Of a DNA stretch of 64,000 nt, positions 34,850 to 63,399 are shown piece after piece. Positions within the stretch are counted from its first letter, which is position 1. Each line of letters starts with the position of its first letter. The notes beneath the pieces were generated by a model that saw nothing but the letters and a program-made list of their open reading frames with translations, did not search any database and was not told the DNA's origin. Position numbers and translations under genes: made by a program. Origin of the DNA: Apostichopus japonicus (taxonomy: Eukaryota; Echinodermata; Holothuroidea; Aspidochirotida; Stichopodidae); assembly GCF_037975245.1 (NCBI RefSeq), contig NC_092575.1:25285841-25349840 (forward strand), written 5' to 3'.

Positions 34850-35092
<243 letters not shown>

Positions 35093-35427
35093 CCGTTGCA
35101 CTTAATGTTACGAGTAATATTTTATTAAAAGTCTATCTTTACTGAAATTCATATGAAAACCATTGTAATGCAATTTTTATTGCTGACACTAAATTAATTC
35201 GAACTTACCCCACACCCCCCTCCCCTCCATTTCAAAAGCCAAAACCAAAGCAAAACTACGCTGAAAATAAGAGCATTCCTCCCAGTAATTTCTGTATTTT
35301 GTGCTTATCTCGTGACCTGAACTGAAATTAAGAACAAAAGGCAGCTTTATTTGAAATCAGGAAACGGCTTATACACCTCTTTTACCCTGCCCTGAATATT
35401 ATAAAAACAAAATGTCTACAAAGTAAC

Positions 35428-38400
35428 TTAATAATAATAGTAACGGTAGACATCGTGGCAACAGCAGCCAGTCTGCACGCGTATGAGTGTCCAGCGATAG
35501 TCGCAACCTTGTCTCACGTATGCCCATTGATATCCGTATTGAGTCACACACTTGCCCTTGCATCTGCAAGGAGTATCTCTGTGGATTAAAAATAAGGTAG
35601 AAATTATTCAAGTTCCAATGTTATGCCACGGTGTCAATAAATCATGGAACTAACAATGATCAGTTCTATGTCGACTTAAGTTTTAAACTCATTTTCATGT
35701 CACCAAAATGACGTCATAGATGATGTAGGTTCTACACACTTTTGGATAGCTTTGTTTTATATCTCATAATTAAGAAAAGAATAAGGTCAACCGCCCCAAA
35801 ACTAGTAACCACGTATAGCACTGTCTAGTGATACTTTTTAAGAAAAAGTCGCCCAGGAAGAACCTGGGCACCAAAAACCAAACTACCAAACGATTGATCC
35901 GCTCTCAGCCCCAGACCTCTTGCATCGGGACTGTGACTGTGTGGTCATCGTCGGGTGTGCATCACCATTCCCCTCGAAAAGGAACAGATACTACACATGA
36001 TCTTAGCCAAAAGGCCGAGTACTGTCTAGTGATATACGTAAACATAATATTAAATATATGACTTTATTGTGACCTTAATACTGATTTCACTAATACGAGC
36101 CGATATGCATTCGTTGCATGGAATAAGGTATTGTAGTACACTAATACCAGCTGCCTATATATGCATTCATTGCATGGAATAATCGATTGTAGTACATTAC
36201 TCTGTATCATACATTGTATATACATTGTACTGCCGTCAGCAGCATATATAGACATTACTAGCTGGTCTCACAATGACGAGAACCCTATATATGTTTACAT
36301 TTGATTTATTAAAGTAGATGCAATGTTACACTCTTCACAATGAAAAGGAAGAGACATGTTATGGATCAATACCATCATTTTTTTAATTTATATTATTTTT
36401 GATTTTGTGTAAATATCCATACAAATTTTACTCATGAGGGTATGGGGAGGGGAGGGGAGGGGGATAGGGAATGAGAGCAACCACGTATACTACTTCTGGG
36501 GGGCTTTAGCGCCCCCCTCCCCAAGGAAAAAAATCAGGGGATAATCCCCCTAACTGGTTTTTAACGACACAAACATCCTAGTGTATAGTAAATATAACAT
36601 GCATATGCGGTATAACCTAAATAGTCGAAAATTATTAACAGTTGCAAAACATAGCACCATTTTGCATCTAATCACGTTCACGTTTACCAAAATTTGTTAG
36701 ACTCCTCTCTAGTCTTACCATCTGATACCCCTTCCCCCACCTCTTCCAGTACCAAACAAAGGTTGTTCTACCCCTGTGGAGGGATCAACCATTCCCCACG
36801 GTTACGGAGGAAATAATCTATTTTCCCTTAATATTTCAGTTTTGCTCACCTGCTGCAATATGCTTCGTAGAACCTTCTTGGATATATTACCCGCACGTAC
36901 TGGCCCCTGATAGTCTGTGCCCACGTGATTTCTGTGAATTGGCGATACACGTTGCATTGGTTTCTGGAGTAATAATACCACAGATGGGCTCTGGAGAAAA
37001 ACAAACGATTTTAAGTTTATTAAACAATGAAGAGTGATTACGTCATTCATAAATCTATCGTTATACTCGATATACACCGCAAATTCTTTAAAAAAAATTA
37101 ACTAAAATAAACTGTGTCACACAATAACCGAGGATTTTTGTAGGTGTGAGTGTCGCTTTAACCACATAGTAACTTGACGTTATCAATTTAACAAACAAAA
37201 TTAAAGGAAAAAGTGCATTTGCTTTTTAAAAAGTTGCGATATTTCGGGTAAAATCTACGATTATTCGCCCCCCCCCCCGCCCCAAAGATAATCGGCCCTA
37301 TATACAAACTGGTAGATTCATATATTTCATGTATTCCTTTGGTCAATAGATAACATATATAACAACTTTGATATTAAAATTTGATATTTGAAACTTGCAC
37401 GTCATACATCAGAAAAGTTTTCAAATCATCTTTACCGAAGGGGTATACCAACTTGTTAAAGGGAAGGTACGAGTGAACATTTTATTTGATTGATGAAAAA
37501 GGACCACATTTTACGCATTCTGCAGTGAAATTTCCATTCAATTCCTTTAAGTATGTATACGAAATAAGAACAATTGAAGTTAACGCGTTACGTACCAAAC
37601 GTAAACTTGACACAAGGTGTGATGTCTTAAATGCAAACTGAAAACAAAAGAAGCCTTTTATAATTTCTTACGTCCAATTGTCTACTTCATAATTAAACAG
37701 AATCTCAATATGAATAGATCAAATTCATTTAGTAAATTGTTAACTTTCCATTCGCTTACAAGTGAACATGAAAAAGCTTTTACAATCAAGAGGTCGAACA
37801 ATAAAGTGCAAGTTCAAGCAACAATATCATCACAACTGTTATTTTGCTTTGCTTCAAATTCACTTATTTTTCAATATTGTGACAATTGCAATTAGCATTA
37901 GCATCTCGAAGCGCAATGTAGAAATTGTATGTCAATCTTTAACCAGGATGTTAAGATTATGTTCCTCTTCCAGTGATAGCAATATTTCTAAAGTAAGTTA
38001 AGTTTTCAAGATATTAACCTTAAACAAAATATTTTTTAAAACTCTGGAATATTCCTTTAAGGCCAACTTGGTGATGACGCCAGCTTCTTGGTCCGGGCGT
38101 CAATGTTAATGTTAGACCATTGTTTTTATAAAATCGTTAAGAAAAAAACTTAACCCAAACCCTAACTTCATATTAAAAAACAGAGCACATTTAGAGGACA
38201 TTCACCACATTTTGTCCTCTTTTTTGACAAGTATTGTAAGAAAGCGAATTATGGTCCTTTAAAGTGTATTGTTTTCCTATTGTGTTATGTGGAGGTATCC
38301 GACCTTAACTGACCTGAAAGATCTGCTTTATTGGCTCCAATTATAGCACGCTACAGCTAGAAGTTTCTTGAGATTACGTAATCGACCTGCCATGGTCGTA

Positions 38401-41400
38401 AATCGACCTCAGGCTCAACAATTAGCCTGCATAGCTTCTCAACACCATTGTGTTAACACTTTGTGGTAATATGTTCAGTCTACAGTGTAGTTAATCATAC
38501 AGCGTTCACACAAAGACCCTCATACAAGAACAATATGCGGCAGGCGTAGCAGACTAATTGTCCTTTTTTACAAGTATTGTAAGCGAATTACGGCCACCTT
38601 AAAGTCTATTGTTTTCCTATTGTGCTATGTGGAGGTATCTGACCTTAACTGACCTGAAAGATCTGCTTTATTGGCTCCAATTATAGCACGCTGCAGCTAG
38701 AGCCATGGTCGTAAATCAACCGCAGGCTTAACAATTAGCATGAATAGCTTCTCAACACCATTGTGTAATCACTTTGTGGTAATAAGTTCAGTCTACGGTG
38801 TAGTTAATCTATACACCGTTCACACAAAGACCCTCCCTCATACAAGAAAAAAATATGCGGCAGGCGTCGCAGACTAATTGGTAAAAAGAGGTCATTTTAC
38901 GACCAAGTCAGGTCGATTACGTGATCTCAAGAAACTTTTCCATGATAGCGTGCTATAGTTGGTGTCTATATAGCATACTTTTAGTGGTCTCTGTGTTAGA
39001 CTATATACTCCAGACACGTTAACGATGAACGTTAACTGTTTATTGTCGAGGTCATTTTAACAATAATTTAAACAAAAAATGGATATAGAAATATTAGGTG
39101 GACTCATAGGTAGCTCAAGTCATGTTTTAAATGTACATGCTTGCCAACTCCCCCCCCCCCCCCCCTCCAACCCAACTTTATATCCTGTCCTATCATAGAG
39201 ATAAAGAAAGTATGAAATAATTTCGCTATACTTCTTATACTTATACTTTCTTACCTCTTTTGTCTAGTCGAAAGAGAGGCATCGAATTCCTCGCAATCTG
39301 CAAGAAGGTTGTCAGGAATGATAGATTCGTTGTTGAACGTTGGCTCACTAGTAATTTCTGACTCCCTGCCAGTGAAATCCTCTTGAACGATGTTTAAGTA
39401 AGTAGCGCGACTGCATGCAGAAAACAGACGAAACAAAATTGTGAGATATCCTTCTTTAAAAATAAAACAAACGAACACATAATATTACGTTTCATTCATA
39501 AGTTATAATGCTACTAATAATAATCAGCAGTTATTTTTACGACGCTTAAGTGACCACAAATGTGGGAGAAACCTACAAGGGCTTATGAATTACAACTTAC
39601 ACGTCGGGTGGCTTCCAATTCAACATTTTAACTCAAATTTGGAATATTTTCAATTTAGAAAGTAATTTGAGATGGGAAAACCGCAGATTGCTCTTGGATG
39701 AAAAGCCCACCTGTTACGTTGGAATGCGAGAGGTCTCGATAACTAATTTTAACGAGACACAAGCCTGGGTTCGTTTCCGTAAGGAACACAGACAAATTGA
39801 CGAGTCTAGAGATTTTAAATGAGAACGTAAACTATATTGAACAATGGATTTCGAACTAACAACAACAAGTGGTAATTACAAATATATAGAAAATTACTCA
39901 CAAACTTAACAAGACAGGATACACTTTAAAACACGCTGGTCTTTTCCAACGGCGATATCCCTCAGCGGCCACGACCTCGATGACGACGATTCTCGGTCCG
40001 TTGTACCGCGAAATTCACTGGTCCTCGACGAAGTTTCTCGCGATCCCAGAAACAGCAGTCACCTTCTTTCCGGCGATGCTCCAAAATAGAAGACGGACTT
40101 CCAGCCACAAAAGAGTGAAGCACAAGTCGAACTTCTCGCCGACTAAATATTACCAGAGTCAGTCCAAAATCAGCTTTATAGCCACCAACTCCTGGCGTAA
40201 CGAACTTCCTCAACGGAGACAGAAATTCTTCACCTTCTCCGCAATAACGACTGAAAACTGTAGTATCACAGTAAAGTCCTCTTCAAACTTCTGAATGGAA
40301 GTGTAGAATCAATCTTGGTATCGATATCTCAATCCTTCAGAAAATACTGGTAGTTGAGCACTGACGATATATAGTAGAATGGTATAATATGTGTCGTCGC
40401 TTGTATTCGTACAGAAACTGAGAAACTCTCCGATCTGGGCGGGTTTATATACGATTCGCCATGTCAAGAATCATCTAGATCTCTCTCGATACACCTGAGT
40501 AACAACGCGACCCGGTTTCTCTATTCTTGGAAGTCCTTTGCATCGCTCGCGAATATTCCAGAGAATCCACGAAGATGTGTACAGCTTACACGCGATCTCA
40601 CGTAAACCGACGTTAACCCGAGACCAGCGCGTCATCATAAGGAATATACCAGAACAATCGTGTATTATAACATTGTGACACGGTAACCCGACCTAATTTC
40701 TCAAATACTGATTTATCACGTAGGCAATTTTAAAGACTTTCTATAATATAACATTAGGTTTCTCATTAGCAGTAAGTAACTAGCGTTAGGCTACAATGGG
40801 CCCTCGTAACACCACCTTACTATGACCCGGCCGGGAATCGAACCCCGAACCTCCGGATTGCTAAGCCTCATTGCTTGAAATGCCACCGCCTTTATCCACT
40901 CGGCCACAGCACCGGTCATGTCTATACACGCAATGTACTTACGATCAATACGTGATACTTATAGTGTTTTGATATGTCTCGGTCGTCTCATAACTTGCCA
41001 ACATTCTTATCATACTGCATGCAGGTACATTGGTCTCCAATTCTGTTCCGATTCTACTTGTTTATTTATTGCTTGTCTCTTCCATTAAGATATAGATGTC
41101 GGTGAAGTCACTATACTCTGGTGAGTTTCTATTTAGTTTATTTAATCAGGCAATTAGTAGGGATGAACTGGATTTGGTATTTCAAATTCAGCCGGACAAC
41201 TGGACAAAACAAAACAAAAATCCGGCTGCGGAAGTCTAGCCGGCTTTACCTGATTTTCAAAATTAACATAACCTAACAGCTTCTTTGGTCTAAAGGGGGG
41301 GGGGGGGGGGGGGATTGTAAACGACATAGTCTGTATATTCTAACCTTCCTGTTTATGTTATCCAGTTTGTGATGATTCACAAATTATGAGATCTTCTTTA

Positions 41401-42496
41401 ATGAAAAACATCTTCAAATCCGACCGGGAATGTCGGCCGGATTTGAAATCCGGTGCATCATGTCCAATGGGATTCCGATATACGTAATCGGTAGGCCGTA
41501 GGGACACCGTCACATTTTATGTTGACTGAAAACTCGTCCCAGAAAACGGAGTGGGCGGTGAGAGAAGGGAGACTGGGGGCAAGCGAGGTCAAAGGTTAGC
41601 AGGGTGGAAATACGTAGTTACGTTCCTGCCGGATTTATTATCGACACATGACACCCCAGTCCCTCCTACCCCCCCCCATAACCCCCATCCCCTTCTAAGC
41701 TTCAAACCCTTTACCGACTATCTCGTCACCCAAGGGATACCAATTCAATATTAGCATGAACTCACAGATTAGAGCAGAAACTATCAGGGACTGCTTGGTC
41801 TTCCGAGGGCACGGTGATGCTCTTTATAGTTGGTGGGGGTTCCTCTTGATCACGTTGTGCAAGCACCGAGTTAAAAAAGAGCAGAAGTCCTAGGACACAC
41901 ATCTATAAATTATAAGACAGTATAGTTAAACGTCTGTATTTAGAAGACTGAGCCTTACATTGAATGATATTGAATACATGTTATTTATTCCAGGACATAA
42001 ATATCTTATATTTTCTTTTTAAGTTTTAGGCTGTAATATTAGTCTGTGTCCAGCCGTTTTAATTGATTAGGCTGAGATACTTAAAAGGCTGATTTCCCTA
42101 AATTTATATGTGGTTTAGATCCTTTTTAACGATCTAAAACATATCAAAATCAATATTGTCCTAACGTCATCAGACCTATACTATTAACCTTCACTAGCTC
42201 TTCTTTCGCAACACTAAAAATTATAATACGATACATGAATTCTAAATAAATATGTCCGTCCGGACATGATGACGTTGTAGATATTACCTCTGGAAAATTA
42301 ATCTGTCATTTATGATATAATTGATCTCACGATAGAAGAAGTTTCAGATAATAAAACAGTCGACTAACAAATAAACAATAACAAAGTTTTGTTGATAAAA
42401 CATAAAATTACGCTTATATTCTTCCTGCATTCACATTTAATGAAAAATTAGGAAGATATTAAACAATCAAGCTTTACTTACTGATTTGAAATGCAT
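35428..42496 (-). CDS. Secreted cystine-knot cytokine-like precursor, gene A
   Basis: Five coding exons on the minus strand: 42482-42496 (start ATG, MHFKS, donor TCA/GTAAGT), 41766-41902, 39255-39410, 36850-36990 and 35428-35578 (stop TAA). Intron 1 is phase 0; introns 2-4 are all phase 2 and all have GT-AG borders. The joined product is 199 residues. Residues 1-20 are a signal peptide (VLGLLLFFNSVLA). Residues 21-103 form an acidic pro-region ending in the furin-type site RQKR (100-103). Residues 104-199 are the mature domain with Cys 115, 148, 154, 156, 160, 175 and 188-190. TIRGQYVRVI, then YC and TPC, then the closing WTLIRVQTGCCCH, resemble neurotrophins (W-x2-IR-x2-T-x-C-x-C) and Spatzle-like ligands (PC, C-x-Q-x-Y, CC-x-C). 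Function as a secreted ligand is inference. Confidence 0.72.
35834..36020 (-). mobile_element. U2 snRNA-derived retroposon
   Basis: On the minus strand the insert begins CTCGGCCTTTTGGCTAAGAT and continues through the branch-recognition region GTAGTATCTGTTC, matching U2 snRNA from about its eighth nucleotide for some 38 nt. The remaining 150 bp are not U2; they contain a GCCCAGGTTCTTCCTGGGC hairpin and end in a short T/A-rich tail. A perfect 14-bp duplication, ACTGTCTAGTGATA, flanks it (35820-35833 and 36021-36034), which indicates LINE-type retroposition. It sits in the last intron of gene A. It is a chimera or SINE with a U2 head, not a functional U2 gene. Confidence 0.85.
37100..38230. other. 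Intron 3 of gene A, upper part
   Basis: AT-rich intronic sequence with a C run at 37270. No additional exon was identified. Confidence 0.5.
38233..38965. repeat. Tandem duplication with inverted tail in intron 3
   Basis: A block of about 330 bp (38233-38562, landmarks GTGGAGGTATCCGACCTTAA and AGATCTGCTTTATTGGCTCC) is repeated directly at 38572-38885. It is then followed by an inverted piece, GATTACGTGATCTCAAGAAAC with GATAGCGTGCTATAGTTGG, that pairs with 38330-38395. This resembles two tandem copies of a MITE-like unit with an inverted end. Confidence 0.65.
39711..40681 (-). mobile_element. Probable solo LTR
   Basis: On the minus strand the segment opens TGTCACAATGTTATAATACA and closes ...CATTCCAACGTAACA, giving TG...CA ends. 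A TATA box (TATATAAACCCGCCC, 40438-40452) sits about 230 bp downstream of the start, followed by a G/C-richer region. This is the layout of U3-R-U5. No internal retrotransposon domain and no clear duplication of the flanks was found, so the left border is uncertain. It lies in intron 2 of gene A; the open frames on both strands over 39962-40294 are attributed to it. Confidence 0.45.
40829..40913 (-). mobile_element. tRNA-derived SINE head
   Basis: The minus strand has an A box (TGGCCGAGTGG, 40897-40907) and a B box (GGTTCGATTCC, 40834-40844) 53 bp apart, with a serine/leucine-like long variable region. The acceptor arms do not pair (5' GGTGCTG against CCGGGTC), so this is not a working tRNA but a SINE head or tRNA pseudogene. 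Confidence 0.65.
41161..41455. mobile_element. MITE with GATGMACYGGATTTG ends
   Basis: GATGAACTGGATTTGG on the left faces CAAATCCGGTGCATC (as AAATCCGGTGCATC at right end) in inverted orientation, and further ATCCGGC/GCCGGAT words occur inside. A run of 17 G interrupts the middle. No duplication was found. Confidence 0.45.
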
Positions 42497-43038
42497 GATG
42501 GCGCTAGTACTGAATCGACTCCGTAAGCTACGTAGGGTAATAAAGAAAATGGTAAGAGTTAAAAAGTCTTTTATCAACGTGTTGTTCAAATGGATAAACC
42601 AGATTATAAAACAGTCATGATACTATAATAATTCAAAATATATAAAATCTTCATGACAACAGAAACGTATACAGAGGCTTTTCGCCGGTTGTTATAGTAA
42701 AATGTATAATATAATGCAATATGTTTGTATCATTTTCTCATTGACACATTAAAAATAATAACACTAACAGCAGTTAACTCTCTATGCGAGTTAGTATATA
42801 CCCATGAATATCCAGTTTAGAGCAAACTATATGATAATAAAATGAAAAAAAAAAATTGCTAATTTGTCTGTACAACGATTTTACCTCGAAAGGGTCGTTA
42901 CTTTACTAAAAGAAAAAGTTTGCCAGCGGCTCGTACAAGACTTGCTTCTCAAATGTATTATATAAGGGATACAAATTAAGACTGGCCAGGCTAACTTTAA
43001 TTTAGTCCAGCGAGAAATTACTGTTGAAATCTACTCAC

Positions 43039-43260
43039 CTGGTTGGATGATATCAATTTCGACTTCTGCAGCGATGCTCTTGAATTTCAGGAAAGATTTG
43101 AATAAATTGTTCATTTCGAAGTCCATATTTATATTCTGTTCTCTACTATTTTTTGCTGACTCCATTTCAATAGAAAAAGGACCAATTTGGTGTAAATCCA
43201 GTTTCTTGACGTCAAACATAAACTGACGAATCATCTGCACTGTTAAAGTTGACGTTTTAG
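43039..43260 (-). other. Non-coding first exon of gene A
   Basis: A consensus donor CAACCAG/GTGAGT ends at 43039, 511 bp upstream of the acceptor of the start-codon exon (42527). The sequence before the donor matches that of gene B at 56153. An 80-codon open frame covers it (43031-43273), but in gene B the equivalent frame is broken, so I treat it as 5' untranslated. The transcription start is not determined. Confidence 0.5.
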
Positions 43261-43261
43261 T

Positions 43262-43345
43262 GATAGTGGCCAATCAAAAGTAGACTTACTAATAGTTGAG
43301 CGGCAGACGATAGGTGAATCGTTCGTTCAAACATCTCTTGTGATT
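43262..43345 (-). promoter_or_regulatory. Putative promoter of gene A with CCAAT elements
   Basis: GGCCAATCAAAAGT (plus strand, 43269) and GATTGGCGG (43337, a CCAAT box on the minus strand) both have counterparts upstream of gene B (56424 and 56481). Their conservation between duplicated genes suggests a shared core promoter. No TATA box is evident. Confidence 0.35.
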
Positions 43346-43839
43346 GGCGGAGAAAAATCAACACTACTGAAGTTCCTCTTTTTTGGGGTGTGGGAGAATT
43401 AAAAATGACAATGCATACGTGCGTCATACAGGCTGAGTAATAACAACAGAATCTATGTTTTTTTTTATACTTTTTTACAATTTTTCCTCTAATTGCTATG
43501 AAATTATAAAAAGAAATATAGTGATTCTTTGTGCAACGTTAACCAAGCTATGCGGTTTTTATAAGTTTCTGTAAAACACAAAACACAGACAAGAGTGTGG
43601 GTGATATTTGTTTGTTTTAGATATACACTATTATTTGACCCGTTTGGTGGTTTAGGGGTCACCAAGATTCGGAGGTTGAACCCCCTGGGTTGGGTTCCAA
43701 AGTTAGAAGAACCAAGATAGTGCTTGCTCTCTCGTGGCAACATTTTAAGCACAATAATAGACGTCTGACAGAAGATGTACTCTTAATTCTTTTTTATTTA
43801 TTAACAATCGACCTTCTCCCGAGGCGGAGCGTCAATACA

Positions 43840-44205
43840 GTCAAGGGGCGGATGCCCCCCCCCCCCCCCTGACGGACTCAAATGGACTGCTGGCGCCCTT
43901 TTGAGGTCTTTACCAATTTTTAATTATTCGCGATTATTGAGTTTTTTATTGCGCTCTCATCTACCTATTGACATTTGTCACATTTTTTGGGCGATGACAC
44001 CTATTTATTCTTCGTTTATCTGCAAATAAGCCAGGCCCGGAAAGGGTCATTTCCGGCGATCTAGGGAGTATCTTTACTCAATTTTTTTTTATGTGCGCTA
44101 CGCGCCAATCGTGGTGGCGCTCTGCTTAGATAGTGTCGAAAGCGCCCCTACAGACCATTCTCGCCCCTCCTGACCAATACCCCTAGCTCCGCCACGGCCT
44201 TCTCC
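43840..44205 (+). mobile_element. hAT-like remnant related to the GCGTATCCAG family
   Basis: GGAAAGGGTCATTTCCGGCG, CGCTACGCGCCAATCGTGG and CTCTGCTTAGATAGTG follow the order seen near the right end of copies 2 and 3, then CTAGCTCCGCCACGG, a typical right terminus. The left limit is unclear, perhaps CAAGGGGCGGATGCCCC at 43843. Confidence 0.5.
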
Positions 44206-45060
44206 CTACCATTTCCCTCGTCGGCTACCATTAACGGCTCCTGGGGCAATGGTACTTTTGCCATTTCGATCAAAGGAACCCAAGAAATAATATCTTCATG
44301 TTATCAGTGGTTTCTAGTTTCTCCAATGTATTTCTGAAGTTCACACGCCCTCAAAACCCACACACGTTCGTCTCTCTTTTGTTTACGTTTATGTTCTCAG
44401 GTCTGCTCTCTAAATGGGATGATCACCACTCCACGCACCCTCTCTCTATCTAATTTGTACCCATCCCCACCCCCCCCCCCACCCCGCTATTACTCCCGTT
44501 TTTTTCCTATTCCAAAATTTAAAAAAAAAAACGTTTACAGCAAAATATAATTAATGAGCACAAAATCCCCGAGGATCCTTGAATTGATTAATTTGGGTCA
44601 TATACAGTACCCTGAATGCCCCCCCCCCCCCACTCTCGCCCCCTCTCTTCCCCGCTCTTCCTATCAGTCTTATTCCGTAAGAACAGATCGCATGCATTTG
44701 CAAGACAGATAATCTGTAGTTCATATTTATTTATAGATACATGTTGCAACACCTGTGACCTGTATTAATTGGTGCAATGAGGCAGTATATTTAATTTAAA
44801 AACTACACAATCAATTGACGTAGATGCAAATTAAACCTGTTTTGTGGTCGACACGAATTTGTGTAAAGAAGGATGTCAGGACATTGTTTAATTTACGGAC
44901 CAGCACACAAGTTATGAATACCTTTTCTGAAAAGCTCCTTTTCCCCACATTTTTAGTCACTAGTGATACTAAAACTAGACAAAACATGAGAGGTGCAAAC
45001 CAAGTTGACTGGTTCAATCATATTAAATATTGCAATATACTATACACAGCATCCAAGAGA
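44206..45060. other. Intergenic sequence between genes A and B
   Basis: No gene is recognised. The words GACGTAGATGCAAATTAAA at 44818 recur at 57502 upstream of gene B, another trace of the duplication. Confidence 0.4.
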
Positions 45061-45063
45061 AAT

Positions 45064-45272
45064 TTAAGGTACCTTATCTTCGACTAAGGCATCAACGTTG
45101 ACCATTCTGGGACAAAATTTCATCATAAATTATTTTGCAGTTAAATATTAAAAAATTTCAGGATATATTTGAGGTCAATAGTTAGTTATACACACCACAT
45201 TGTGAGCTCAGTTACTTTCATTATCTGTTAGTTAGGTGGAGTGTAGGGGTGAGGGCGGGGACTTGTCTGTGC
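45064..45272. repeat. Duplicated segment, upstream of gene A
   Basis: AAGGTACCTTATCTTCGA, TGAGGTCAATAGTTAGTTAT and GGGCGGGGACTTGTCTGTGC occur in the same order and orientation at 52485-52690, which lies in intron 1 of gene B. Identity is high at both ends and lower in the middle. It marks a tandem segmental duplication. Confidence 0.9.
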
Positions 45273-45629
45273 TTAATATAATCATAATCATAACCATAAT
45301 CATAATCATAATACAATTATATAGTGTTAAATACAGCTCTGGAAGAGCAGTGATCTGCAGCGCTTTACAAAAACAGTTACAATGTCCAAACGGGTTGTTT
45401 TTATATTGCAAACAAGGCGGATCGAAAGGGTAAGGCAACTTTGTAGAGTAAAGTTATCAATCTTGCCTTGAATAATTACTGAACTGACATGATATTATAC
45501 GACCCTTGAAGGGAACTACTAAAGGAACCCCCTCCCCACCCCTCCCCACCCCTCTACGTCCACACCTCTATGGAAGATAACAAATGACATCAATATAAGG
45601 GATAAAAATCTAGTTTTGTTCTCATCAGT

Positions 45630-45857
45630 TTAAGAATATTCACCCCAATAGCTTGATCTGAAGGACGCTACAAAATCATTTTCTTCTGTGTCATGTAGGA
45701 ATAAACAAGTGGAAATGCATTTTGGGTAAGTCGCATTATCTGAGAAATCTCGGCTGAGGTCAACGAAAATCAAATATGCATTGTCTCGTTCGGGTTTGCA
45801 GGAGTTTTTATGATATTTTACGTTTATGTTTAAGATATGTACCTGATATACATACAC
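45630..45857 (-). other. Unassigned open frame with cysteines
   Basis: The minus strand is open for 75 codons and reads like protein (CKPERDNAYLIFVDLSRDF, then YPKCISTCLFLHDTEEN, ending SYWGEYS and TAA). An acceptor-like TATATCAG precedes it at the edge of a (TA)n tract. It might be a terminal exon of an extracellular protein, but neither a family nor an upstream exon was found. Confidence 0.2.
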
Positions 45858-45858
45858 A

Positions 45859-45861
45859 ATA

Positions 45862-45913
<52 letters not shown>

Positions 45914-45930
45914 TTTATATATATATATAT
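45859..45930. repeat. (TA)n microsatellite
   Basis: Imperfect TA tract with two short interruptions. Confidence 0.95.
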
Positions 45931-46399
45931 AGGAGACTTGATCAAGTCAAATATTTACATGTAATTCAGGCTTTCTAATTAGTTCGAGGTCATTTGCTGT
46001 AGAAGAACCGCTCGGCAGTTTTGCAATTTGAACGTTTCAACACTTTATGTGTGGAATACGACCTATATCATTGGAGCCGATTCCGATTTCTTCCGAGTCT
46101 TTAACGTTTTTTTATGGATCCGTCGATTGTAAACAAGTTGAAGGTTGTTCTGTTATTGTATGTGTGCAACTTTCGTTAGCAATTTTGAGTAAGCACAATT
46201 CAATCCTGATATCCACAAACATTTATCACCGTCTCCCCCGCCTATGTCTAATATTTTTCGCCAAAACAAATGGTCGAACTGCTCAGAAATATTGCCAATC
46301 GAAAGGAATTTCTCAAGTAGAAGCTTGGCTGAGCTGATGCAAAGTTGCTACTATTGTTTTCGTTAATTAATTTTCTTCAGACTTCAGTATAAAACTTTC

Positions 46400-46920
46400 T
46401 TTGCGGGTGGGCGGCCGATGAATGCGGTGGGTGCAGTGGGTGCGGTGGGCAACAGTAGCATTGCGTATACACGTGCTTTTGTGAACTAATTATGTTAATG
46501 ATTATTTCATAACTTTCACATCTTTCTTGATCATTGTCTATATGGTCAACAATCACGACCCCCTCCCCCCATCCCTACCCCTCGTCCCTTTCATCGATGA
46601 CGTAAATTTGGAGCAGAACCATGAGAGGCGGCAGAACAGAAATTCATGGGCCCCACCTCCATCGTCTGTCGGTGCAAAACATTAATTTGCTAGTTCTTGC
46701 ATTTCAGTCATAGAAGAATTTACAACTCTTCTTGGTCAAGAACGTCCTTAGTACGGATCCAGAACTGTAATTGTGAATACCTCGTCTTTCAACCGCACAA
46801 CTTTTTTTTAACTTTATTAGTACAACCTTGCGTTCAAACCTAATTAAATACCTATAATTTGCGGTTTCGTTTTTGACTCTGATCGTTGAACGATTTGAGG
46901 TGTAAACTTTCCTTTGTTAC
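46400..46920. other. Intergenic, nothing recognised
   Basis: One short G/T-rich run (GGTGGGTGCAGTGGGTGCGG, 46426) but no gene or transposon end. Confidence 0.35.
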
Positions 46921-46924
46921 CCTG

Positions 46925-47107
46925 GAGGAAGACTCCGAACTCCCCACCCACCCAACCACCTCCTTTATATGGGCATTGGTTTCAACGACCCCGATGCCAC
47001 AGCCCCTCCTTTACAAAATCCTGGATCCACCTCTGGTCCGCCTCTGATCCGCCTCTGGTATGCCTCTGATCTGCCTCTGGTCTGCCTCTGATCCGCCTCT
47101 GGTCTGA
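46925..47107 (+). mobile_element. hAT-like right end expanded into an 11-bp tandem repeat
   Basis: The text CCCTCCTTTACAAAATCCTGGATCCACCTCTG (ending near 47036) is a typical hAT-like right terminus. Its last bases then continue as eight units of the form GATCCGCCTCTG/GGTCTGCCTCTG with an 11-bp period to 47107. Confidence 0.55.
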
Positions 47108-47984
47108 AACCCCACTGCCGGGCTGTATGGACTTGACATGTTATAATTAATCCTTTTACAGAATATCAAGTACCCTTTCCATGACATCAATTCAAAACTG
47201 ACAAACATTAGTGTTGGATGGCTCCTATTATACAGCTATAGTTTGTATCTTCGTTAGGAGGACGGGTGGGGGGGGGGGCGGATGGGGATTTGGTGACTGG
47301 CGAATGGGTAGGGGTGTGGGAAGCGGATATGCAAGGATTCAACCATGATGTATGCGGCTGGATAGAACCGGTCCGAAACTGAACGTTAACGTCTGATGGG
47401 TGAACCTGTGTTAGATTTCAAATACTACGCTAAAAACGCCGGAAACATGATAGTCCGTTTTTACCAATAAAAAGGTTAACATTTATTATTTCCATGCCCA
47501 TATATGTGTATTTGCAAAGATTTCAAAGAACCTAGATTATAGACTGTTTGAACTGCATCGAAATATTCGTAAAATTAGACCAATGGTATCACATTGTGAG
47601 TAACAACTCCGTTTTACTGCTCCTCGTAAAGTCCTTAATAGTGTTCTGGTTCCATAAAAATGTAAGAGGTTAGAATCCACAGAACAATACTCTTTCAAAC
47701 GTTTATTTTTCTAATTATTATTTAATAATCAGGACAAGATAGATCAGGTTTTGAGTGTGATCAATTGGCTCACCCCTTCTCCCACCACCCACTCATTCAA
47801 TCCCCCCCTCCCCCTTGTCCTCTTTCAAAAATCCCGAGAAAGTTATACTCTATTTGTTGAAAGGAAAGCTCATGAGATCCCTACGTATTTGGTTGTATTA
47901 GTAGATTTGGGATGCATTTCTCCAGTCTAAATATATGTGAACTTGGGACTTACGGAATTAAATTGGAGTCGAAAATAGTGAAAT

Positions 47985-48135
47985 AACTTGACACCAAATA
48001 ACATAGAGTTACATTTCATAACATTAGATACGATAACATATAATTACGTTACGTTACATAAGATAACATTACATTTCGTTACATTACATTAATTAATTAA
48101 CATTACATTACCTTACGTGACATTAACATATCACA
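47985..48135. repeat. Degenerate (ACATT)n repeat
   Basis: Alternating acatt, acgtt and ataac words with a 5-bp rhythm, no coding content. Confidence 0.8.
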
Positions 48136-48284
48136 AAAATTACAATTCATTATGTTTTTTTTTTTATAAAATGTACATGGTCACCGGAAACTTAAAGAAG
48201 CTGATTCACATCTTGTTAGGGTTTCTTAAAGAAGTAAAGTATAAAATATAGAATATTTTGTACCGTGCTTTGGAGTAACAAAGT

Positions 48285-54262
<5,978 letters not shown>

Positions 54263-54299
54263 TTTGACAGATGTCTTCGTTGAACAAGATGTCACTAAG

Positions 54300-55190
54300 G
54301 GAGAAAATGAAAGGTTTGACATAAATATTACACTTGTTTAGTCTGGTAGTTGCTGATGATTTTTCCAAAGCAAGGCATGAAGTTGTCTCAAGCACCGAGT
54401 ACTCTTATACTTTGATACAAGTCGTGAATAATCCAAAAAAAGGTGACTTTATGCCCACAATCTATTTGGATATGTTATAAACCATTAAAAAACACTTCGA
54501 TCAGTTCATGTTGTTTATCTATAGAACTTTTAAGTTTGGAGAAATGACCCTATAAAAACATCTGGGGTTCATCAATTAAAGTAACTGGATTATACAGTCT
54601 AATACACAAGTGTGTAGGTCAGCTCCTCGGATCAGGGAGTTCCTTTCTTAGATTCATCACAAAATGCAATAGACAAAACATATAGGCCAAAGACAATTTA
54701 TAGCTTCGAATAACATAGCACAATGCATTCAAATATGGACGAAAGGTCAATCATGCTCTGCTGTTTATTTTATTTTTTGTAATTTATTTAAGAGAAAATT
54801 AAATTAACTTTAACATGTAGGGCCTTCATTTGCACTAAGCTATAGCCTAAAAGAGCATTCCAGATATAGCAAAGCATAGTTTTGAAAGCTGAATATCTCG
54901 AAAGCCGGACTATATATACCATTAGCAATATACCCCTCTCTCCATTTCCTTAGACTATATGACATATTAAGACTAACAATCTGACTAAACTCATCTTTTC
55001 AACATAGAAGAGTTATTTAAATGTTACCGTTAATTGAACCTAACAGTGGCTGATCTACAGGCTTTCTCGAAAGAGCGGGACGGAGAGATCATTTTAAGCG
55101 AGTTTGAAATGACTAGGTCAGAGCGTCAGAGCTCGGTCAAAGTAAGGAATACTAGCTCACAGAGCGAGTATTTCTTGCTTTTCGTAGGCA
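54300..55190. other. Intron 0 of gene B, lower part
   Basis: AT-rich sequence between the start-codon exon and the hAT-like fragment at 55197. I see no exon, RNA gene or repeat. Confidence 0.4.
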
Positions 55191-55196
55191 AAAATA

Positions 55197-55470
55197 ATCA
55201 AGGGCGTAGGAACAGCCCCCCCCCCCCACTGAAAAATATGATGGGGTGGAAGTATCATTCCCCCCCCCCCGCTTCGCAAGGCAGAAAACCCCTTTTTCAT
55301 TTCCAAATGAGAAAAAAAAATCTCATTTGGAGCACCAATTGCAACTAAGGCCAGGTGAACATGCAAAATTATTTACAAAATGGAGTGGGTGTTGAAGTGT
55401 GCTATATTGCACCAAACTGCATCTGAGGCCACCTGGAAATGCAAAAAAAAAATCCAAAGGGGGAGGGGGA
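55197..55470 (-). mobile_element. Second copy of the 50192 family, 3' truncated
   Basis: It starts CAAGGGCGTAGGAA and shares TTTCATTTCCAAATGAGAAA and GGCCACCTGGAAATGC with 50192-50524 in reverse order. The other terminal repeat is missing, so no duplication can be tested. It lies in the first intron of gene B. Confidence 0.8.
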
Positions 55471-55549
55471 CACCCCTCCCCTTAGACCCCTCCCCCCATG
55501 TTATACTCGAAGGAGAAGAAAGTAGTTTCGCCCGTTCAAAGAAATAAAC

Positions 55550-55985
55550 CCATTTATTAATTAATTAATTAAACATCATTATACGTAATATGTTCATAAT
55601 GTAACACTTAGTCTCATTAATATCATATCGTTAATATTATAAAAAGAACAATAGCATACTTCATTGTCCTTTTAAATAGTTTTCTTTTCAGAATTGCAGG
55701 GCAAATTTGTATACAAAATTTGCTAATTTAACGGCTTCTAATTCAAGCGGAATTACGAAATGCCATTAAAAATAGCAGCATGTGGAGAGAACAAAACTCC
55801 CTTGAGAAAAGTGGAGGGAACATGGCCCACTGTTAATATACTGTATGTTGATGTTAATGTATGACAGGGTATACACTATACGAACAGTTGTTTCTGCTAC
55901 CTCGAAGTGACTTGAAATAAACAGTGAGCTTATTTGGCAAAGATAAGTGTGTGTATTACACCTTTAGGCTATAGCATCCAATATT
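55550..55985. other. Intron 0 of gene B, AT-rich
   Basis: Nothing recognised apart from a short TTAATTAATTAATTAA run at 55556. Confidence 0.4.
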
Positions 55986-55989
55986 AACG

Positions 55990-56135
55990 AGTTTTAAATA
56001 GCGAGAATTAAAATTAAACGAGACTTAACCGAGAATTAAAATAAGAAAATTAACTTTAAAATTAAAATTTAACGAAAATTAAACGAGAATTAAAATAATA
56101 AAATTAAAATAAAACGAGAATTAAAATAACGAGTT
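55990..56135. repeat. Degenerate AAAATTAAACGAGAATT repeat
   Basis: About eight copies of a 15-20 bp word with variable spacing, just 3' (minus strand) of the first exon donor of gene B. Confidence 0.8.
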
Positions 56136-56152
56136 TGAAGGTTTTCACTCAC

Positions 56153-56330
56153 CTGGTTGGTAGAATATCTTCTTGGTTTTGATTTCTTCAGATGCGCTGT
56201 CAAATGTCAGGAACGTTTGAAATCATTCCAAAATTCCAAGCTCTTTTATCACCTTTTTGCTCAACAGGTAGGCTATAGCAGTTACAGCAACGTGGAAAAA
56301 TCATCCAAACTTTCTGCATTTGACGTAGAA
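56153..56330 (-). other. Non-coding first exon of gene B
   Basis: The donor CAACCAG/GTGAGT ends at 56153, and the 60 bases before it (with TTCCTGACATTTGACAGCGC) align with the first exon of gene A. The upstream border is not defined. Confidence 0.5.
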
Positions 56331-56500
56331 TATAAATTAACCAATAGCGTAGAATTAAGCAATTGACGTAAACATAAATTAACCAATAGCGTGAACTGTA
56401 AATAAGACGGTGGTGTTATACAGACCAATCAAAAGTGTCGTTACTTAAAGTGTAGGCGATATTGTCAGCTCGGACGGCTTCGGATTGGCTAAAACATAAG
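56331..56500 (-). promoter_or_regulatory. Putative promoter of gene B
   Basis: ACCAATCAAAAGTG (56422) and GATTGGCT (56481) correspond to the CCAAT-like pair upstream of gene A. Two direct repeats of TTGACGTA...ATAAATTAACCAATAGCGT (about 56322 and 56362) lie between first exon and promoter. Confidence 0.35.
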
Positions 56501-62673: not shown

Positions 62674-62751
62674 CTGACGAAGGAAAGAAAGAGAACATAT
62701 TCAATGTAAACTTCAAAGACTTGTAGAACGGGTACAACAACAGAGGCATTA

Positions 62752-63390
62752 GTACAATATCATGAGTACGAGTACAACACCATGAGTGCTAGTAAAACAA
62801 CATGAGTACGAGTACAATACCATGAGTACAACACCATGAGCGCGATTACAATACCATGAGTACGAGTACAACAGCAGGAATGAAAAGTACAACACCACGA
62901 GTGCAACTACACGAGTGCGAGTACAGCACCATGAGTGCGAATACAATACCGACAGCAGGAGTACGAGTACAGCACCATGAGTACGAGTACAAATCCACAA
63001 GTGCGAGTACATCACTATGATTTGGAGTAAAACAACACGAGTACGAGTTAAACACCACGAGTGCGAGTACAGCACCATGAGTACAAAACCATGAATACGA
63101 GTACAACACCATGGGTACGAATACAACACCGCAAGTACGTGTGCAACATAAGGTGTACGAGTACAGCAATATGAGTACGATTACAACACCATGAATGCGA
63201 GTATAACACCACGTGTGCAAAGTACGACACCGTGAGTACGAGTACAACGCCAGGAGTACAATACAACAACATGAGTATGAGTACCGACACTGTGAGCACG
63301 AGTGCATCAACGTGAGTGCGATTACAACACAACGGGAACGAGTAAAACACAACACCATAAGTGCGAGTACACTAACATGGGTACGAGCAC
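62752..63390 (+). repeat. 18-20 bp minisatellite, unit ATGAGTACGAGTACAACACC
   Basis: About 32 imperfect units of lengths 12 to 22 bp, all built from gagtacgagtacaacaccat. Long open frames on the minus strand (up to 170 codons, rich in Tyr, Ser, Cys and Val) are produced by the repeat and are not genes. Confidence 0.95.
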
Positions 63391-63399
63391 ACTAGAATT

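What the first reader, a model, noticed from the sequence alone, without database searches (positions are those of the whole stretch)
35428..56153. Tandem pair of divergent cystine-knot cytokine-like genes assembled from micro-exons
Seen: two minus-strand genes with identical exon order, the same intron phases (0,2,2,2), a signal peptide, an acidic pro-region and a Cys-rich domain ending W-x2-(I/V)-(R/K)-V-x-(T/S)-G-C-C-C-H. Known: neurotrophins and Spatzle are secreted as precursors cut at basic sites, and their knots end in W-x2-IR-x2-T-x-C-x-C or CC-x-C. Inference: these are a little-described branch of that superfamily, too diverged and exon-split for standard gene callers.
Basis: partly seen in the sequence, partly recalled or inferred. 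Interest (0 to 1): 0.88.

Follow-up and report, generated by a model that had tools for sequence, protein, structure and literature searches.

The report
Divergent neurotrophin/Spätzle-like sea cucumber genes
This stretch of a sea cucumber genome holds two neighbouring genes for small secreted signalling proteins that look like far-diverged cousins of nerve growth factor and of the insect immune signal Spätzle, with extra cysteines and a gene layout of their own.

Summary
Two minus-strand genes, A (window 42496-35428, 199 aa) and B (54262-48285, 158 aa), each have five coding exons, GT-AG introns with phases 0,2,2,2, a hydrophobic N-terminus, an acidic pro-region and a C-terminal Cys-rich domain ending W-x2-[IV]-[RK]-V-x-[TS]-GCCCH. 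'Micro-exons' is wrong: exons 2-5 are 90-156 nt.

The genome is a sea cucumber's (five NGIWYamide repeats). It holds three relatives: B2 (complete, same phases), A2 (near-copy of A, exon 2 split by about 10.5 kb) and B3 (truncated, one cysteine lost).

Each knot alone finds only neurotrophins in the PDB (not significant). The five-member profile finds 18 neurotrophins in 19 hits, best E 0.031. Cys-fixed shuffles of the genome's own neurotrophin never reach its score (0 of 2000). The last exon folds alone as a long hairpin matching NGF, IL-17 and Spätzle weakly.

Best reading: secreted, pro-cleaved, probably disulphide-linked dimeric ligands, a third branch of the neurotrophin/Spätzle superfamily beside this genome's canonical neurotrophin and its Spätzle/NT2-like cluster. 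Receptor and expression are unknown; whole-domain structure was not predicted. New variant of a known kind.

The parts
35428..35578 (-). Gene A coding exon 5: second half of the knot (Cys III-VI and the hairpin ending WTLIRVQTGCCCH) and stop codon
   Evidence: homologous exon in four other loci
36850..36990 (-). Gene A coding exon 4: first half of the knot (Cys I and II, motif RRFYEAYC)
   Evidence: relatives
39255..39410 (-). Gene A coding exon 3: acidic pro-region ending in the RQKR furin-type site
41766..41902 (-). Gene A coding exon 2: hydrophobic core of the signal peptide and start of the pro-region
42482..42496 (-). Gene A coding exon 1 (ATG + 4 codons; the exon itself starts upstream, near 42527)
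43206..43296 (-). 5' block of gene A shared with gene B (promoter or first non-coding exon)
48285..48438 (-). Gene B coding exon 5: second half of the knot, ending [13 protein letters not shown] plus a short tail
49006..49137 (-). Gene B coding exon 4: first half of the knot (Cys I and II)
51208..51297 (-). Gene B coding exon 3: acidic pro-region with an RLPR site
52283..52380 (-). Gene B coding exon 2: signal peptide core
   Evidence: homologous exon in B2
54260..54262 (-). Gene B coding exon 1 (ATG only; exon starts near 54293)
   Evidence: similar first exon seen in B2
56363..56451 (-). 5' block of gene B shared with gene A

Best explanation
A and B are two members of a small, fast-evolving family of secreted cystine-knot signalling proteins in a sea cucumber, a third branch of the neurotrophin/Spätzle superfamily. 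Shown from sequence: a five-exon precursor with a hydrophobic N-terminus, an acidic pro-region and a C-terminal domain with the six neurotrophin-type knot cysteines (Cys III lost in B3) plus three further cysteines shared by all five copies (9 in the mature part of A, A2 and B2; 13 in B). Inferred: the signal peptide is removed on secretion; the pro-region is cut at RQKR (A) or RLPR (B); two knots pair as in NGF and Spätzle, and because the number of cysteines is odd at least one could form a bond between the two chains; the dimer binds the leucine-rich ectodomain of a Toll-type or Trk-type receptor. Which receptor, and whether the role is immune or neural, is not settled by the sequence; the tandem copies, fast change and Spz7-like extra cysteines lean slightly towards an immune or stress role.
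For: Same five exons and phases 0,2,2,2 in A, B and B2. 22 invariant columns over five copies, 8 of them Cys. An alignment of A and B2 with this genome's neurotrophin and one Spätzle-like protein puts all six knot cysteines in register in the four rows and shares F-x4-C at Cys II in all four (F-Y-E-x2-C in A and the neurotrophin) and W-x2-I at the end in three of four. PDB by sequence: only neurotrophins for A and for B alone, E 1.2-1.9; 18 of 19 hits for the profile, best E 0.031 (one of these, 'ovulation-inducing factor', is NGF by recall). Pfam: NGF to E 0.0015, Spaetzle to E 0.01. hhalign of the family against neurotrophin plus two Spätzle-like proteins: E 9.6e-5, probability 58. Cys-fixed shuffles reaching the score: 0 of 2000 for the neurotrophin, 0 of 2000 for L024, 22 of 2000 for L013; reciprocal test 0, 1, 12 and 1 of 2000 for A, A2, B and B2. 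Constraint: no frame-shifting gap in the compared coding exons of A/A2 or B2/B3 against 4.0 and 3.6 expected at the intron rate; knot exons of B2/B3 changed at 7 of 313 sites against 161 of 3262 in introns (p 0.034). Structure of exon 5: hairpin, block pLDDT 84-93 in its core; Foldseek 11 of 38 (A) and 10 of 36 (B) matches are NGF.
Confidence: 0.8

Rival explanations
1. They are divergent IL-17-type cytokines. IL-17 shares the cystine-knot fold and occurs in echinoderms.
Against: No IL-17 sequence appears in the PDB sequence searches and no IL-17 family in Pfam at E up to 10 (HMMER's filters drop most weak matches). The best Foldseek probability for A is NGF (0.90 at rmsd 1.5) against 0.41 or less for IL-17 rows, and B has only 2 IL-17 rows of 36. 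All six neurotrophin-type cysteines are in register with the neurotrophin of the same genome.
Confidence: 0.06
2. They belong to another cystine-knot family (Noggin/Trunk/PTTH, glycoprotein hormone, bursicon) and the neurotrophin likeness is convergence on the knot.
For: FSH chains are among the Foldseek matches of B (7 of 36). PTTH and Trunk are named often in a paper on moulting components that are present in non-moulting animals (PMC6660194, search listing only; detail recalled).
Against: Cys-fixed shuffles show likeness beyond cysteine spacing. No such family appears in Pfam at E up to 10.
Confidence: 0.04
3. The cluster is mostly decaying: A and B are relics without function.
For: A2 is split by about 10.5 kb in exon 2. 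B3 matches B2 only from intron 2 on and has lost a knot cysteine. A/A2 dN/dS is 1.57.
Against: A, B and B2 have complete frames, splice sites and cysteines. B and B2 are saturated at silent sites while keeping the domain (dN 0.505). Compared coding exons lack frame-shifting gaps.
Confidence: 0.06
4. They are not signals but secreted effectors or structural proteins built on the knot, as horseshoe-crab coagulogen is a clotting protein (recalled).
For: Coagulogen is the third Foldseek row of B (probability 0.51). Many cysteines in B (13).
Against: No direct evidence. Small size, pro-region and cleavage sites fit a ligand equally well or better (inference).
Confidence: 0.08

Closest known systems
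Canonical neurotrophins (NGF, BDNF, NT3, NT4; sea urchin Sp-NT; this genome's own at C1:6485324)
   Same: Secreted precursor; six knot cysteines in register; F-x4-C at Cys II; W-x2-I-x-[IV]-x-T-x-C-x-C at the end of A and of L012.
   Different: Knot split by an intron just after Cys II; three extra cysteines; no Asp at the hairpin position that Wilson 2009 calls strict in canonical neurotrophins (T in A, B2 and B3, N in A2 and B); PF00243 cut-off not met, whereas this genome's own neurotrophin has a 241-residue frame with the whole knot open in one exon and scores 92.9 bits.
Spätzle family and sea urchin Sp-NT2 type (this genome: cluster at C1:290-306 kb)
   Same: Multi-exon precursor, extra Cys next to Cys V, Spaetzle profile hit below cut-off for B, B2 and B3; Asn at the hairpin position in A2 and B, as Wilson reports for Sp-NT2 and many Spz.
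   Different: Ends GCCCH, not [PQ]SCC[SA]C as in the C1 cluster; no Pro before the final cysteines (L013 of the cluster has none either); the whole knot of L013 and L024 lies in one open frame, here it is split after Cys II.
Daphnia Spz7 (Wilson 2009)
   Same: By that text Spz7 has extra cysteines between III and IV and between IV and V; the window family has both. Both families are tandem-duplicated.
   Different: Crustacean-only in that paper; its sequence figure is not held, so homology of the extra cysteines could not be tested. Likely convergent (inference).
IL-17
   Same: Related cystine-knot hairpin by Foldseek.
   Different: No sequence match.

Membership tests
Neurotrophin/Spätzle superfamily | Six knot cysteines in neurotrophin order, ending C-x-C | tested here: met
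   A C115, C148, C154, C160, C188, C190 in register with L012 and L013; B3 lacks Cys III
Neurotrophin/Spätzle superfamily | Sequence likeness beyond cysteine spacing | tested here: met
   0 of 2000 shuffles for L012 and L024; weaker for L013 (22 of 2000) and, in the reciprocal test, for B (12 of 2000)
Neurotrophin/Spätzle superfamily | Secreted precursor with pro-region and basic cleavage site | tested here: inconclusive
   Hydrophobic N-terminus and acidic pro-region in A and B; RQKR in A, RLPR in B; no RxKR in A2 or B2; no predictor or peptide data
Neurotrophin/Spätzle superfamily | NGF-type fold | tested here: inconclusive
Canonical neurotrophin (Pfam PF00243) | Score over the curated cut-off of 27 bits | tested here: not met
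   19.1 bits (B3), 18.2 (B2), none for A, A2, B
Canonical neurotrophin (Pfam PF00243) | Asp at the hairpin position (mammalian Asp30) | tested here: not met
   Thr in A, B2 and B3, Asn in A2 and B (alignments; rule taken from PMC2772990)
Canonical neurotrophin (Pfam PF00243) | Precursor in one exon (Sp-NT and vertebrates, per PMC2772990) | tested here: not met
   Five coding exons
Spätzle (Pfam PF16077) | Score over the curated cut-off of 27 bits | tested here: not met
   16.9 bits (B2), 16.6 (B3), 16.1 (B), none for A and A2
Spätzle (Pfam PF16077) | Conserved Pro at the dimer interface (Pro136 of PMC2772990) | tested here: inconclusive
   No Pro just before the last cysteines in the five copies, but the figure that fixes the position is not held
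Spätzle (Pfam PF16077) | Binds and activates Toll | not testable with these tools
   needs protein
IL-17 | IL-17 sequence profile | tested here: not met
   No IL-17 family at E up to 10 for A, B or the five knots

The most novel reading that the evidence does not exclude
Sea cucumbers, perhaps echinoderms at large, have a third class of neurotrophin/Spätzle-type ligands with a nine-cysteine knot and GCCCH end, evolving fast in a tandem cluster as cytokines for Toll-type receptors. That would give deuterostomes a Spätzle-like protein ligand for Toll-family immunity.
Probability: 0.2. Interest if true: 0.8.

Novelty: new variant of a known kind. Interest (0 to 1): 0.5.

Why it matters
[quoted passage not shown]). 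A third branch that sits below profile cut-offs and is split over exons would mean such surveys may undercount these ligands outside arthropods and vertebrates. Sea cucumbers are known for regeneration and rely on innate immunity (recalled), so either a trophic or an immune ligand would be of use. It also makes testable whether a deuterostome Toll-type receptor has a Spätzle-like ligand.

Tried and rejected
A first guess at the C-terminal codons found nothing in the genome. The Spaetzle family search of the genome gave 0 matches at E 0.001 and 4 sub-cut-off matches at E 10; two of these, at C1:290-296 kb (L024, L025), look real and the other two (L026, L027) look like chance. The NGF family search gave 6 rows: one true neurotrophin (L012), B3, L013 kept as Spätzle-like, L014 an isolated 55-residue frame left unresolved, and two dropped because they hold stops (L015, L016). 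The L013 query gave 5 rows: itself, L024, the L025 place at E 1.2, and two dropped for stops (C5, C12). Of the 11 rows, nine are exons of the five copies and two (C11, C14) were dropped as chance. L006 (C15:26.65 Mb, E 0.5, with a stop) was dropped from all counts.

Positive selection on exon 4 of A/A2 was considered: 18 of 135 sites differ against 315 of 4816 in introns (p 0.0045), but two other, mainly intronic, stretches of the same alignment reach 19 changes in about the same length, so I do not claim it. B2/B3 coding exons taken together do not differ from introns (19 of 421 against 161 of 3262, p 0.81); only the knot exons are slower and the pro-region exon is faster (12 of 108, p 0.012). 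B2/B3 dN/dS is 0.66 from 7 changes, uninformative. The 4.0 frame-shifting gaps expected for A/A2 fall to 2.9 if gaps near simple repeats are left out (P of none 0.056). In some searches columns in poorly aligned neighbourhoods were skipped before counting (326 intron columns, 3 of exon 4 and 10 of the 5' flank; 152 intron and 24 tandem-repeat columns).

Pfam cobW hits (2 of 5 members, E 0.055) and the D7r4 hit were taken as chance. NCBIfam gave nothing (a prokaryote library). B2 exon 3 was found by a scan for a phase-compatible frame and is a candidate, though the frame is kept in B3. No tree was built: the domain is short and I had no other species. Foldseek's 'viral' library was not searched.

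Paper searches that listed no paper whose title or abstract start announces a neurotrophin/Spätzle-like family in sea cucumbers: no paper at all; listings of 20 or fewer rows; the library lacks most subscription journals. One search (hammerhead) listed one unrelated paper.
Full report
What was checked. The window is C15:25285841-25349840 of a 671.6-Mb genome in 35 contigs. Both genes of the finding are there. Each has five coding exons with AG/GT boundaries and phases 0,2,2,2. Gene A encodes 199 residues and gene B 158. Both begin with a hydrophobic stretch, continue with an acidic pro-region and end with a Cys-rich domain whose last strand is WTLIRVQTGCCCH or [14 protein letters not shown] shared 5' block suggests that the two genes are duplicates with their upstream region. 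Exons 2-5 are 90-156 nt, so 'micro-exons' does not apply.

Which animal. A pattern for echinoderm NG peptides (written from recall) finds five matches, all coding NGIWYGK followed by the start of a further codon compatible with Arg, within 179 bases of C5; the reversed control pattern gives one match in the genome. A PLoS One paper reports that the NGIWYamide precursor of Apostichopus japonicus has five copies, whereas the sea urchin peptide is NGFFFamide (PMC3432112, passages). The genome is therefore most likely a sea cucumber's; the species is not known.

The family in this genome. The last exon of A finds six places, five of them believable; the last exon of B finds the same five; a 104-residue query from B2 finds both knot exons of B2 and B3. 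The five copies are A and B (window), A2 (C15:25222.7-25238.6 kb, plus strand), B2 (C15:24828.9-24835.7 kb, plus strand) and B3 (knot exons at C23:6690.0-6691.7 kb, minus strand). Search counts are lower bounds by the tool's own statement. B2 is complete: five exons, phases 0,2,2,2, 171 residues (exon 3 a candidate). A2 matches A through exons and introns, introns differing at 315 of 4816 counted sites, but about 10.5 kb of other DNA sits inside its exon 2, between C15:25223410 and 25233882. B3 matches B2 only from intron 2 onwards, so no signal-peptide exons were found for it in the 20 kb fetched, and it has Phe in place of Cys III. So three copies look intact and two broken.

What kind of protein. 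Pfam finds nothing with the full precursors A and B. With the five knot domains, Spaetzle matches 3 of 5 (best E 0.01) and NGF 2 of 5 (best E 0.0015), all below the curated cut-offs; A and A2 match nothing. Against PDB sequences A alone gives five hits, all NGF (one filed as ovulation-inducing factor; E 1.2-1.7), and B alone gives one, neurotrophin-4 (E 1.9). Neither is significant alone, but two proteins that share about a third of their knot residues picked the same family out of 177,635 sequences. The five-member profile gives 19 hits, 18 of them neurotrophins, best E 0.031.

The same genome holds a canonical neurotrophin (L012, PF00243 at 92.9 bits) and a Spätzle/NT2-like cluster at C1:290-306 kb (L013, L024, L025). 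These gave an internal yardstick. hhalign of the family against L012, L013 and L024 gives E 9.6e-5 with probability 58 over 83 columns. When everything but cysteines was shuffled in the target, 0 of 2000 shuffles of L012 and 0 of 2000 of L024 reached the real score, 22 of 2000 for L013; the reverse test gave 0, 1, 12 and 1 of 2000 for A, A2, B and B2. The likeness is thus more than cysteine spacing, least clearly for B. Shared features: a hairpin motif, A-T-N-I-Y-G-x-x-V in A2 and A-Q-T-I-R-G-x-x-V in A, where NGF has A-T-D-I-K-G-x-x-V; F-Y-E-x2-C at Cys II in A, A2 and L012; and W-x2-I at the final strand of A, A2, B2, B3 and L012, W-x2-V in B.

Three endings. The canonical neurotrophin ends DTACNC, the C1 cluster IPSCCSC, VPSCCAC or IQSCCSC, and the window family [QRKE][TS]GCCCH. 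With Cys V and VI aligned, the extra cysteine of the C1 cluster lies before Cys V and that of the window family after it. The window family has two more shared cysteines, between III and IV and between IV and V (B3 lacks Cys III itself). Wilson 2009 describes additions in the same two intervals in Daphnia Spz7, also tandem-duplicated (PMC2772990 section 8); its figure is not held, so I could not align them. That paper also describes sea urchin Sp-NT (one exon) and Sp-NT2 (several exons, an extra Cys beside Cys V, a Pro at the dimer interface) (passages and section 16). The C1 cluster resembles Sp-NT2 by this description; the window family fits neither fully.

Selection. A against A2: 198 codons, dN 0.095, dS 0.060; no stop, and the two coding gaps are both three bases, whereas 46 of 56 intron gaps are not multiples of three; 4.0 frame-shifting gaps were expected (P of none 0.018, or 0.056 without gaps near simple repeats). 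B2 against B3, exons 3-5: no coding gap, 3.6 frame-shifting ones expected. The knot exons of B2/B3 are slower than introns (7 of 313 against 161 of 3262, p 0.034) and the pro-region exon faster (12 of 108, p 0.012); taken together the coding exons are not slower. Older pairs (A-B, A-B2, B-B2) are saturated at silent sites with dN 0.5-0.9. The picture is a constrained knot with a freely changing pro-region, and no purifying signal between A and A2, one of which is broken.

How it likely works. Shown: gene structure, precursor anatomy, cysteine framework, superfamily likeness. Inferred: secretion, cutting at RQKR (A) or RLPR (B), pairing of two knots, and a bond between chains because nine or thirteen cysteines cannot all pair within one chain (counts). 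The receptor is open: sea urchins have Trk and p75NTR (PMC2772990, passages), and Spätzle binds Toll in a mosquito (PDB titles). I lean slightly to a Toll-type receptor from the Spz7-like cysteines and tandem copies, at low confidence.

Verdict. A real, small family and a divergent third branch of the neurotrophin/Spätzle superfamily in a sea cucumber: new variant of a known kind. Main gaps: expression, other species, the whole-domain fold and the receptor.

Noticed in passing
window 51815-51882 (-), intron 2 of gene B: Hammerhead ribozyme: Rfam RF00163 at 34.9 bits over 51830-51871, just over its gathering score; the HH9 model matches at 36.7 bits, below its own cut-off. A long TA repeat lies about 120 bases away.
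   Followed up: partly
window 35834-36020 (-), intron 4 of gene A: Insertion of about 187 bp starting with the 5' part of U2 snRNA (37.7 bits, below gathering), flanked by the 14-base repeat TATCACTAGACAGT; A2 has one copy of the slightly changed site and no insertion, so it probably came after the A/A2 duplication.
   Followed up: partly
G000 C15:25223411-25233881 (L018 from 3411, L019 to 3881): About 10.5 kb of DNA with GGCGGTCC-type repeats at both ends interrupts exon 2 of A2. The element was not identified.
   Followed up: partly
G000 C1:290-306 kb (L013, L024, L025): Cluster of three Spätzle/Sp-NT2-like knots ending SCC[SA]C, all below Pfam cut-offs where scored.
   Followed up: partly
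G000 C1:6485324-6485629 (L012): Canonical neurotrophin with a 241-residue frame open in one exon and an RYKRR site.
   Followed up: partly
G000 C19:19517184-19517333 (L014): Short open frame ending FEWRRIAITCVCEC with an NGF match of 20.3 bits, below cut-off; may be another knot exon or chance.
   Followed up: no
window 45149-45321 and 52567-52739: 173-nt repeat, 86% identical without gaps, upstream of gene A and in intron 1 of gene B; probably a dispersed element.
   Followed up: no
window 35000-35100 and 62749-63391: Long simple repeats: an ATC run just 3' of gene A and a repetitive stretch that stays open in two frames.
   Followed up: no
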